From Chloroflexota bacterium (GTDB lineage Bacteria; Chloroflexota; Anaerolineae; CG2-30-64-16), in contig JAPLHB010000105.1 of the NCBI GenBank assembly GCA_026389845.1, positions 62,001-126,000 of the forward strand: DNA of 64,000 nt. The letters run 5' to 3'. Below, piece after piece: positions 10,591 to 13,368 of this stretch. The number at the start of each line of letters is the position of its first letter. The stretch's first letter is position 1. The notes beneath the pieces were generated by a model. The model saw only the letters and a list, made by a program, of their open reading frames with translations. It made no database searches and was not told the origin of the DNA. Made by a program: the position numbers and the translations under genes.

Positions 10591-13368
10591 CTACGGCGAC
10601 GCCAGGGCAAAGGGCAAGAACTGGAGCGCCGTAGTGACCATCACCGCCTGTGGCGCCGACCATGCGCCGGTGTTGCCGGCCAGGTCATGCGCGCGGACGC
10701 GGAAACGCACCACGCCGGACGCAGGAGCCGGGTAGCTGCCGTAGGTCGCCGTCGTCTCCCTCAGCCAATCCTGCCATACCTCGGATGACGTGCCAGGCAC
10801 TTCGAAAGTGCCTGGCACGTTGCTGCTGCTCACCTGCACGTCGAACGTCGCCAACCCGGCCACGCCATCCCACCCAAACCATTGCACGGTGAACGACCTG
10901 CCGGCCGTGGCCCAGCGAGGAGCCGCCAGCGTCACCGCCGGCGGCGTTACGTCCACCCGCACGGGCCAAGCCGGGCCGGTCGCGATCAGCCCTACGTTAT
11001 CGCTCGCCTGGAACTGCACCCGGTTCGCCCCGCTCCCCTCGCCTCCCGGCCAATCCCAAACCAACTCCGCCGAGCCGTCGAGCTTGGTCGTGGCGCTCAC
11101 CGGCAGCCACGCGCTCCAACTCACCCCCGCGTCGGTCGTGAACCGGGCCACCGCGCTGCTGGGAGCGATGCCAGTCAGATCATCGGCGATGAAGGCGCGG
11201 ATGGTGGGGCGCAGGGTCGTGGTGACCCAGCCGGTGGGGGCCAGCAGTTGCCAGGCGCCGGGCGGCGCGGTGTCCACCAGTTGTGTCGTGCCGCTGACCT
11301 CGGCCGAGGGATTGCCGGCCGCGTCCAGCACCTTGACGACCACCGGCTGCGGCCCGGCGCGGTGTTCCAGGCGATGCGGTGCATCCGTCCCGAACGACGT
11401 CGGTCCGTGCAGGATCTGCACGCGGTCGAAGAAGATTGCAGATTGGAGATTGGAGATTGGAGATTGGATTCTCTGCGCAAGCGAGTCGGCGGTGATGAGC
11501 CTGATCCCTACCCCACCGTTGGCCTGGGGGGAGAGCCAGAAGTCAATGGGAAACTCCTGGTAGACGCCAGCTTGCCGGAAGTCGCCGGGGCGCAGATCGG
11601 CGAAGCCGAGAAGCTCGTTGGAGGTGGGGTCGTAGAGCTCGACGCGCCCCCACGTGCCAGGCACTTCCGAAGTGCCTGGCACGTTACTGGCGGTTCGTAC
11701 ACGCACATAGGCCTGGTAAATCTGGTTGGTCGCGAGGGATTGCGGCAGCGTGGCCTCCCAACGGCTGGCGACGTCTGCCGGCAGGGCGAGCGCGTGGCCG
11801 CCCAGGGCGTCTGGGTCGGCGACCAGGGTTCCTGCGCCGGATAGGAAGATGAAATCGGCCGCCACCGCCTGCCAGTCTCCGCCCGCGGCCACCCCGGCCA
11901 GCCCGCTCGCCCCGGCATCGGTGGCCGAGATGTGCAGCGTGATCGTAAGGGATGGCGCGCTGGTGGGCAGGGTAAGTCGGTGGATTGCGGGCGGCGAGCG
12001 GTCTTCACCGGCCAGGGTCAGCGCATGGGTGAAGGTGATGGTCTGTGTCGGCGCGCCGGTCGGGGACAATATCGCAGCGCTCGCCGTGATCGTCACCGGC
12101 CGCGTCAATGTCGCCGGCAACGGCCACTCCGCCGACCAGAGGCCGGAGAGACTTCCGAAGTCTCCGAGACTTTGGAAGCCTGGCGCGGCGAACGTCATCG
12201 TAACGGTCGCGGTCGGCGCAAAGCTGGCGTGGGCGGTCAGATAGGCGGTCGAGCCGGTCAGCCAACTGCTTGGGCCACGCGGAGCGGTCAGCAGGCTGAG
12301 GGATGGGTTGCCGCCGAGCGGATCTACGACCTGCACGCCGGTGTAGTAGTGCGTCAGGATTTGCGTTGCGTTCCAGCCGCGCTGGCTGGCCCACCGTTGC
12401 GCGCCCCATTGCGAAAGGCCGTGGCCGTGTCCGTATCGCGTCCGCCCCAGGCTCACCGGGTCGAGCACCGGCTTGAGATAGGGGAGGCCGCCATCCAGGG
12501 TCGGATGACCGTTCTCCGCGGAATACTGGGCCAGGATGATCTCGCCTCCGTAGGCCAGGTAGCGACCGGCTGTGGCCGCGGTCGCCGCGTCGGTGGCCGG
12601 GTAGCGGGCGTCGCACATCACCTGATCCACAGCCCAATCGCTGATATCATAAGTCGCGTCTGGCGGAGCCAACAGCACCTTACGCCAGGCGAAGGTGCGC
12701 ACCGCGATCGCCTGCGCCTGGAGGGTCGCCGCGGGCCAGGAGGTGTACACCTCGGCAGGCAGCACGCGGGCAACGTACTCCTCGAAGGGGATGACCGTCA
12801 CCGCCCAGTCGGGTAGGTTGCGACAACTGTTGGCGGGATGGTGGGCGACGCGGATGGAGGGGGGCGGAACGATTGCAGATTGCGGATTGCAGATTGCAGA
12901 TTGAGAACTGCCACTACCACCTGGTGCAGCGAGAATCGAGGATCGGGATTCAGGCAGTGGTCCGATCCACTCTGGTGGAATGGAGGCCTGGTGCGCGGCG
13001 CCGTCTCCTGCGGTGTCCGCCACCCACCAGCGGCCCAGGGCAGCGGTCTCCGTCCCGGTGGAGACGGCCAATACGGCGACCTGACTCCCGTCGGGCGACC
13101 AAATAGGCGTGCTGAAGTGCTCAGATTCGCCGGCCAAGACCAACCGCGGCGGCTCGTCCCGCACGGCCAGCCACAGCTCCGGCGCGGGGCCGGGGGTCAG
13201 CCAGGCGGTGGCGTGGCCGACGGGGGCAGCGAAGGCGCGGGCGGCGGGAGGTTGGAAACTGGAAGCTGGAAACTGGAATCCAGACGCACAGCCGGGCGAC
13301 ACAAGAAGGGACAGCCAGAGGCAGGCCATTGCCAAACGCCAGGCCGTCCGGATGAAGATAGAGATCAT
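10591..13368 (-). CDS. SpoIID/LytB-domain secreted protein with repeat-derived insertions
   Basis: VIPFEEYVARVLPAEVYTSWPAATLQAQAIAVRTFAWRK ... GHGHGLSQWGAQRWA is the SpoIID core. Confidence 0.88.
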   Translation of the reverse strand: MISIFIRTAWRLAMACLWLSLLVSPGCASGFQFPASSFQPPAARAFAAPVGHATAWLTPGPAPELWLAVRDEPPRLVLAGESEHFSTPIWSPDGSQVAVLAVSTGTETAALGRWWVADTAGDGAAHQASIPPEWIGPLPESRSSILAAPGGSGSSQSAICNPQSAIVPPPSIRVAHHPANSCRNLPDWAVTVIPFEEYVARVLPAEVYTSWPAATLQAQAIAVRTFAWRKVLLAPPDATYDISDWAVDQVMCDARYPATDAATAATAGRYLAYGGEIILAQYSAENGHPTLDGGLPYLKPVLDPVSLGRTRYGHGHGLSQWGAQRWASQRGWNATQILTHYYTGVQVVDPLGGNPSLSLLTAPRGPSSWLTGSTAYLTAHASFAPTATVTMTFAAPGFQSLGDFGSLSGLWSAEWPLPATLTRPVTITASAAILSPTGAPTQTITFTHALTLAGEDRSPPAIHRLTLPTSAPSLTITLHISATDAGASGLAGVAAGGDWQAVAADFIFLSGAGTLVADPDALGGHALALPADVASRWEATLPQSLATNQIYQAYVRVRTASNVPGTSEVPGTWGRVELYDPTSNELLGFADLRPGDFRQAGVYQEFPIDFWLSPQANGGVGIRLITADSLAQRIQSPISNLQSAIFFDRVQILHGPTSFGTDAPHRLEHRAGPQPVVVKVLDAAGNPSAEVSGTTQLVDTAPPGAWQLLAPTGWVTTTLRPTIRAFIADDLTGIAPSSAVARFTTDAGVSWSAWLPVSATTKLDGSAELVWDWPGGEGSGANRVQFQASDNVGLIATGPAWPVRVDVTPPAVTLAAPRWATAGRSFTVQWFGWDGVAGLATFDVQVSSSNVPGTFEVPGTSSEVWQDWLRETTATYGSYPAPASGVVRFRVRAHDLAGNTGAWSAPQAVMVTTALQFLPFALASP
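10788..10820. repeat. 33-bp palindrome ACGTGCCAGGCACTT-CGA-AAGTGCCTGGCACGT inside CDS
   Basis: Perfect 15-bp arms, 3-nt loop; encodes NVPGTFEVPGT in frame. Confidence 0.95.
11435..11469. repeat. Heptamer array ATTGCAG ATTGGAG x3 ATTGGAT inside CDS
   Basis: Five 7-nt units; encodes IQSPISNLQSAI in frame on minus strand. Confidence 0.95.
11652..11684. repeat. Second copy of the 33-bp palindrome inside the same CDS
   Basis: ACGTGCCAGGCACTT-CCG-AAGTGCCTGGCACGT; encodes NVPGTSEVPGT. Confidence 0.95.
12148..12180. repeat. Palindromic repeat GAGACTTCCGAAGTCTC + GAGACTTTGGAAG inside CDS
   Basis: 7-3-7 palindrome followed by degenerate second unit; encodes GFQSLGDFGSLSG. Confidence 0.85.
12871..12905. 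repeat. Heptamer array GATTGCA GATTGCG GATTGCA GATTGCA GATTGAG inside CDS
   Basis: Five units; encodes SSQSAICNPQSAIV. Confidence 0.93.
13254..13281. repeat. Heptamer array GGAAACT GGAAGCT GGAAACT GGAATCC inside CDS
   Basis: Four units; encodes GFQFPASSFQ. Confidence 0.9.

What the first reader, a model, noticed from the sequence alone, without database searches (positions are those of the whole stretch)
10591..13368. A SpoIID-domain gene carrying six in-frame repeat elements
Seen directly: two near-identical 33-bp perfect palindromes (10788-10820, 11652-11684; 11 codons each, encoding VPGTxEVPGT), one GAGACTTCCGAAGTCTC-type palindrome (12148-12180), and three heptamer arrays (11435-11469, 12871-12905, 13254-13281), all read through without breaking the 925-aa frame. 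This parallels Rickettsia palindromic elements inserted in protein genes, but the sequences and the mix with heptamer arrays are different. Inference: the elements spread by an unknown mechanism and are tolerated where they keep the frame.
Basis: partly seen in the sequence, partly recalled or inferred. Interest (0 to 1): 0.85.

Follow-up and report, generated by a model that had tools for sequence, protein, structure and literature searches.

The report
Mobile hairpins inserted in-frame in genes
A 33-letter hairpin of DNA, very probably moved by a dedicated single-strand transposase encoded next to the mutS gene, has inserted itself dozens of times into the protein genes of this uncultured Chloroflexota bacterium, nearly always so that it adds the same apparently harmless 11-residue peptide to a loop of the protein.

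Summary
The window gene (SpoIID domain, 925 aa) carries two perfect 33-bp palindromes, one degenerate 33-bp palindrome of another family, and three heptamer arrays, all in frame. The genome has 93 copies of the first palindrome; the reversed control gives 0. Of 65 full 33-bp copies examined, 38 lie inside my gene calls: 35 are read in one codon phase (xVPGTSEVPGTx), 3 in the second, 0 in the third. Alignments to solved structures show clean insertions of about 9-13 residues in Era, PheT, RluD, RdgB and MutS. The likely mover is a RAYT-type tyrosine transposase; its gene lies between palindrome copies beside mutS in two genera. Many relatives of this transposase in other Anaerolineae are flanked by their own, unrelated palindromes of about 33 bp without the GTAG tag. 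Canonical RAYTs of the same class have GTAG repeats and keep the GTAG-binding residues, which this clade has lost. A second family shows the same phase rule (17 of 19) in other genomes. Genes carrying REPs, and RAYTs flanked by non-GTAG repeats, are known, so this is a new variant. The heptamer arrays are a separate, common repeat class. Transposition itself is inferred, not shown.

The parts
10591..13368 (-). SpoIID-domain protein gene, 925 aa (P0001), host of the insertions
   Evidence: Open frame; Pfam PF08486 at residues 189-273; orthologs across Anaerolineae
11652..11684 (.). 33-bp family-1 palindrome (15+3+15), residues 562-573 NVPGTSEVPGTW
   Evidence: Exact hairpin, DNA fold -19.1 kcal/mol, z -8.3; absent from orthologs P0006-P0012 in alignment A1; lies in a low-confidence loop (562-570) between strands 549-559 and 574-579 of the predicted model
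10788..10820 (.). 33-bp family-1 palindrome, residues 850-861 NVPGTFEVPGTS
   Evidence: Exact hairpin, z -8.8; absent from P0003 and P0006-P0010; falls between predicted strands 839-849 and 866-872
12149..12181 (.). Degenerate 33-bp family-2 palindrome AGACTTCCGAAGTCT-CCG-AGACTTTGGAAGCCT, read as FQSLGDFGSL
   Evidence: Two mismatches to a family with 32 matches in G011 and 27 in G056; no clean insertion in the ortholog alignment
11433..11469 (.). Heptamer array AGATTGG/AATCTCC, peptide QSPISNLQSAI
   Evidence: Tandem Repeats Finder; orthologs P0006-P0012 lack the segment
12871..12905 (.). Heptamer array GATTGCA/AATCTGC, peptide QSAICNPQSAI, in a linker
   Evidence: variable linker in orthologs; residues 137-169 low-confidence in the model
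13254..13281 (.). Weak heptamer array (GGAAACT/GGAAGCT), peptide FQFPASSFQ, near the N-terminus
   Evidence: Sequence; below the Tandem Repeats Finder threshold

Best explanation
The palindromes are copies of a non-autonomous mobile hairpin, a tag-less REP-like element of mostly 33 bp (two 15-nt arms and a 3-nt loop), cut and rejoined as single-stranded DNA by a HUH/tyrosine transposase of the RAYT type encoded beside mutS. The element inserts without a target-site duplication. Because it is 33 bp long and open in all frames, an insertion into a gene adds 11 residues and does not shift the frame. Selection then keeps mainly copies read in the one phase that yields a polar, turn-like peptide (VPGTSEVPGT) at a loop. 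Shown: dispersal, in-frame insertion, phase bias, flanking of the transposase gene, parallel transposase-palindrome pairs, compensatory arm changes. Inferred: that this transposase moves the element, the single-strand mechanism, and selection as the cause of the phase bias.
For: Copies and sharp ends: 65+66 hits with up to 3 mismatches, reversed control 0, 93 cores genome-wide, unrelated flanks, no target duplication. In genes: 38 of 65 inside called genes, phases 35:3:0 (binomial p about 5e-14 against equal phases). Family 2 in other genomes: 17:1:1 of 19 (p about 6e-7). Insertions against solved homologs: Era exactly 11 residues, PheT, RdgB, RluD, MutS, E2 of pyruvate dehydrogenase. Transposase: P0077 matches PF01797 and is closest to NCBIfam REP_Tyr_transpos and to TnpArep 4er8; it lies between palindrome copies beside mutS in G000 and, 89% identical, in G009. 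Parallel pairs: transposase relatives flanked by their own palindromes of about 33 bp. Internal control: GTAG-type RAYTs in the same class form a separate clade and keep W94/R104, which the tag-less clade lacks. Hairpin maintained: 7 of 15 pairs with changes on both sides, 0 of 500 shuffles as high. 35-bp copies: 0 of 11 in genes.
Against: G004, G005, G006 and G007 carry the palindrome, but no close ortholog of P0077 was found there. P0077 scores 75.5 bits, under the NCBIfam cut-off of 80. About half of the relatives in the clade show no palindrome within 400 bp by my criterion. Some 34-bp copies are inside genes, so frame preservation is not absolute. No pair of nearly identical genomes with an empty and a filled site was available.
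Confidence: 0.75

Rival explanations
1. The palindromes spread by another route (a different transposase, template switching at hairpins, or gene conversion), and the RAYT next to mutS merely collected copies.
For: Four palindrome-bearing relatives lack a close RAYT. Tandem half-unit expansions (20, 21, 28 bp period) point to slippage at the hairpin.
Against: The flanking is conserved in two genera, and unrelated palindromes of the same build flank other members of the same transposase clade. Canonical REPs are also found without their RAYT, as described in PMC3733652.
Confidence: 0.15
2. The 11-residue peptide has a protein-level function (for example a docking or flexible-linker module), and the DNA palindrome is a by-product of its repeated use.
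For: One phase is strongly preferred in two families, both containing TSEV-like peptides.
Against: Hosts are unrelated (tRNA synthetase, Era, gyrase-type subunit, helicase, transporter). About 40% of copies are intergenic. The DNA arms covary as a hairpin.
Confidence: 0.04
3. The palindrome is a chromosomal binding site (nucleoid, segregation or repair protein) that happens to lie partly in genes.
For: Fixed, symmetrical sequence in dozens of copies.
Against: The arm sequence changes completely between genomes while the 15+3+15 build and the transposase link persist. The copies are insertions relative to orthologs.
Confidence: 0.06

Closest known systems
Canonical REP/RAYT system (REPtron; TnpAREP of E. 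coli and Stenotrophomonas)
   Same: Y1 HUH transposase gene flanked by palindromes that are dispersed in the genome; each transposase has its own palindrome family
   Different: No GTAG/GTGG foot; GTAG-binding residues replaced; unit of about 33 bp; more than half of the copies inside genes
TIRtron / TIRYT (Di Nocera et al. 2013, PMC3733652)
   Same: RAYT-like genes flanked by inverted repeats unrelated to GTAG, some self-complementary and dispersed in moderate numbers
   Different: In what I read of that paper (passages and sections 15-16), TIR families were not reported as inserted in frame in genes, with a phase rule, or as a build of about 33 bp shared by unrelated sequences; the supplementary tables could not be compared
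Intragenic GTAG and CGTC REPs, including Rickettsia palindromic elements (RPE-4/6)
   Same: Palindromes inserted in frame in many unrelated protein genes, including repair genes
   Different: Different sequence and no GTAG or CGTC tag; CGTC repeats have no known transposase; here a candidate cognate transposase is present
Heptamer arrays (short tandem repeats of period 7; heptameric repeats as in Xanthomonas and Nostoc, PMC4692102)
   Same: The arrays of the window gene are of this kind: period 7, many units, in and between genes
   Different: Distinct from the palindromes: no hairpin, no link to the transposase seen

Membership tests
Canonical REP/RAYT (REPtron) | Y1 HUH transposase with HxH and catalytic tyrosine | tested here: met
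   LPNHYHFLL and CRYIHANP aligned to TnpArep H..H and Y115; PF01797 35.2 bits
Canonical REP/RAYT (REPtron) | GTAG/GTGG tetranucleotide at the 5' foot of the hairpin | tested here: not met
   Flanking bases of 65 copies vary; none seen in the transposase-proximal copies
Canonical REP/RAYT (REPtron) | GTAG-contacting residues (W94, Q95, E100, H101, R104 in E. coli) | tested here: not met
   W94 and R104 kept in all 7 GTAG-type RAYTs, absent in all 17 tag-less ones
Canonical REP/RAYT (REPtron) | Transposase gene flanked by its palindrome, which is dispersed elsewhere | tested here: met
Canonical REP/RAYT (REPtron) | Specific cleavage of the single-stranded hairpin | not testable with these tools
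   Needs purified protein
TIRtron / TIRYT | RAYT-like gene flanked by inverted repeats unrelated to GTAG REPs | tested here: met
TIRtron / TIRYT | Protein belongs to one of the four TIRYT groups | not tested
   The paper's alignment (Additional file 5) was not available
Rickettsia palindromic elements | In-frame insertion in many protein genes | tested here: met
Rickettsia palindromic elements | RPE sequence families (CGTC tag for RPE-4/6) | tested here: not met
   Element ends are ACG..CGT with variable flanks; no conserved CGTC foot
MITE of a DDE-type IS | Target-site duplication | tested here: not met
   Direct repeats of 3 bp at the ends: 1 of 65, shuffled expectation 0.7; none longer

The most novel reading that the evidence does not exclude
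A distinct RAYT clade in Anaerolineae has abandoned the GTAG guide and co-evolved with hairpins whose length (33 bp = 11 codons), freedom from stops and coding content make them nearly neutral inside protein genes in one phase. These elements therefore use the coding genome, not only the spacers, as habitat, and leave repeated natural peptide insertions in essential proteins.
Probability: 0.4. Interest if true: 0.8.

Novelty: new variant of a known kind. Interest (0 to 1): 0.62.

Why it matters
It gives a candidate mover to palindromes that decorate protein genes, a question open since the Rickettsia elements, for which no dedicated transposase is known. It separates a tag-less transposase clade from the GTAG type with an internal control in the same bacterial class, which makes the role of the guide sequence testable. 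The insertions also form a natural map of positions at which essential proteins (Era, PheT, gyrase-type subunit, MutS) accept an extra 11 residues.

Tried and rejected
A common origin of palindromes and heptamer arrays: rejected; the arrays have 29 different units and no link to the palindrome. Target-site duplication: none. A target motif: weak, score 107.6 against a null maximum of 93.4, not interpretable as a clear site. 'Always 33 bp': rejected as an absolute rule; 34- and 35-bp copies exist, about a third of the copies listed, none of eleven 35-bp copies inside a gene but some 34-bp ones are. Occurrence of the first palindrome in the wider phylum: none in 398 genomes other than the window's own; it is concentrated in one family, with a few matches in other families of the class. 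The literature search for the sequence itself found nothing relevant. The tree label test for the 33-bp group alone was not significant; only the GTAG group clusters clearly.

Full report
Observation. The 925-aa frame at 10591-13368 (-) is real and open and carries a SpoIID domain at residues 189-273. The two perfect palindromes are at the stated places. Each is a 33-nt hairpin with 15-nt arms and a 3-nt loop, -19.1 kcal/mol as DNA, z below -8. The third palindrome is 12149-12181, one base off the reported place, with two mismatched pairs. Two heptamer arrays are clear; the third, at 13254-13281, is weak.

Not chance. The pattern ACGTGCCAGGCACTTNNGAAGTGCCTGGCACGT with up to 3 mismatches has 65 forward and 66 reverse hits in the 6.84-Mb assembly, against 0 for the reversed control. 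Allowing any loop of 0-30 nt around the core gives 93 copies. In the places listed there, most copies are 33 bp and the rest are 34 or 35 bp. [quoted passage not shown] Arms are complementary in nearly all copies, pairing stops at the ends, and there is no target duplication. Outside the window's own genome the element is absent from 398 sampled Chloroflexota genomes, but it is present in several genera of the same family and in a few other families of the class.

Insertions in genes. I read about 4 kb on each side of each 33-bp copy and called genes with a codon-usage model. 38 of 65 copies lie wholly inside genes, 2 partly, 25 between genes. Called coding density is about 86%, so copies are depleted in genes but far from excluded. 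The reading phase is strikingly biased: 35 copies give xVPGTSEVPGTx, 3 give the RARHFGSAWH phase, 0 the TCQALRKCLAR phase. Since 33 bp never shifts the frame and no phase of the consensus has a stop, this bias reflects the peptide (or an insertion preference), not frame rescue. A second run with slightly different settings and a stricter element definition gave 33:4:0. If insertion were uniform and intergenic copies neutral, phase-1 insertions would be retained at roughly 70% of expectation; this is a rough inference.

Precision. Alignments to solved structures show what was inserted: Era (exactly 11 residues against two homologs), PheT, RdgB/Ham1, RluD-type pseudouridine synthase and MutS of relative G009. 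MtnA, pyrimidine-nucleoside phosphorylase and the E2 acyltransferase show less clean gaps at the same place. Pfam confirms the identity of ten hosts, including a gyrase/topoisomerase IV A-type subunit, a RecD2-type helicase and an RsmF-type methyltransferase that carries two copies. In the window gene, orthologs at 49-59% identity (P0006-P0012) lack both VPGT segments, whereas the closer ones carry VPGT-like or altered versions at the first site (P0002, P0003, P0005) and at the second (P0002, P0004, P0005). The insertions are therefore lineage-specific but not all recent. In the AlphaFold model (low overall, mean pLDDT 53), residues 562-570 and 853-860 are low-confidence stretches between well-predicted strands. 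For the third palindrome the alignment shows no 11-residue gain, so its insertion is not demonstrated.

The mover. A search for Y1 transposases found one gene of G000 exactly between clusters of the palindrome on contig 213, directly beside mutS. An 89% identical gene sits at the same place beside mutS in G009, again with the palindrome on both sides. The protein, P0077, has the HUH motif and the tyrosine of RAYTs, matches PF01797, and is closest to NCBIfam REP-associated tyrosine transposase, just under its cut-off, and to E. coli TnpArep.

Generality. Many relatives of P0077 in other Anaerolineae are flanked by palindromes of entirely different sequence and the same build: for example AGTCTTGCGAGGGTT-CCA-AACCCTCGCAAGACT on both sides in G026, AGGTGCCCGTCACTT-TGG-AAGTGACGGGCACCT in G033, AAACCCGAAGGGTCT-CCG-AGACCCTTCGGGTTT in G047, AGACGTTCAACTTCT-TGC-AGAAGTTGAACGTCT in G025. 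Some are 34-35 bp, and about half of the relatives show none within 400 bp by my criterion. In contrast, more distant RAYTs in the same class, and even the same genomes, are flanked by GTAG...CTAC repeats of about 45-60 bp. The GTAG type lies on one side of a long branch and all tag-less ones on the other (support 94/95; long branches advise caution). The residues that contact GTAG in E. coli TnpAREP (PMC8266576, PMC6006769) are kept at W94 and R104 in all seven GTAG-type proteins and in none of the seventeen tag-less ones.

A second family. The third palindrome of the window belongs to AGACTTCSGAAGTCT-NNN-AGACTTCSGAAGTCT, which has 32 matches in G011 and 27 in G056 and occurs in 17 of 60 relatives. 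Of 19 copies inside genes of six other genomes, 17 are in the same codon phase as family 1, giving xTSEVxxTSEVx. Across 30 distinct copies the arms change on both sides together (7 of 15 pairs; 22 cells against 3.4 in shuffles, 0 of 500 as high; 96.7% paired, against at most 53% when slid), while the loop varies freely. So the hairpin, not the exact sequence, is what is kept. In the window the degenerate copy is read in the rarer DFGSL phase.

Heptamer arrays. They are a separate phenomenon: 67 perfect period-7 runs of at least 21 bp in 0.62 Mb, 29 different units, 25 of them inside genes. Because 7 and 3 share no factor, each array encodes one heptapeptide in all frames of a strand; several units are free of stops. 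I found no link to the transposase.

What is known. REPs inside genes, including repair genes, were described by Di Nocera et al. (PMC3733652), as were RAYT-like genes flanked by non-GTAG repeats, some self-complementary and dispersed ('TIRtrons'). A 2018 survey (PMC6006769) describes atypical structures beside subclass 2.6 and in-frame REP insertions within transposase genes. The present system fails the GTAG test of canonical REPs and meets the loose definition of a TIRtron. What I did not find described is the combination: a tag-less clade, a build of about 33 bp shared by unrelated sequences, and strict phase use inside protein genes.

Limits. The assembly is a metagenome bin with 8% estimated contamination. 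Gene calls are my own. No empty site from a near-identical strain was available. Four relatives carry the palindrome without a close P0077 ortholog. Transposition by P0077 is inferred from linkage, parallel pairs and homology.

Noticed in passing
window 60038-60110: Perfect heptamer array ACGTACC, 10.4 copies, the longest of the window; the genome is full of period-7 arrays with many different units.
   Followed up: partly
window 9087-9151: CGTCGTT heptamer array overlapping a 19-bp inverted repeat.
   Followed up: no
L075:3984-4080 (G000 contig 90): Half-palindrome plus flank amplified in tandem with 21-bp period inside a 1462-aa gene, giving NVPGTSEVPGTWIEVPGTWMEVPGTWIEVPGTW; similar 20- and 28-bp expansions in L087, L103 and L064.
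   Followed up: partly
L196:2724-2860 (G007 contig 2): Three full palindromes repeated with a 54-bp period, suggesting tandem amplification with flanking DNA.
   Followed up: no
L177:1911-4619 (G009 mutS) and L103:11729-14569 (G000 mutS): mutS beside the transposase is itself decorated by several in-frame repeat peptides that differ between the two genera.
   Followed up: partly
L314:2991, L317:2986, L322:2986: 34-bp copies inside called genes switch phase within the element (VPGT to SAWH); how the frame is kept was not resolved.
   Followed up: partly
L269-L274 (G011): Family-2 copies in G011 lie in a larger conserved repeat (ttcgggggaa...ggacccagtt) between genes, unlike the bare copies elsewhere.
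   Followed up: no
L289:1668-2387 (G000 contig 221): A second tag-less transposase of the own genome is flanked by another hairpin, GATGCCAACTTTTCGGAAAAGTTGGCATC; its copy number was not counted.
   Followed up: no
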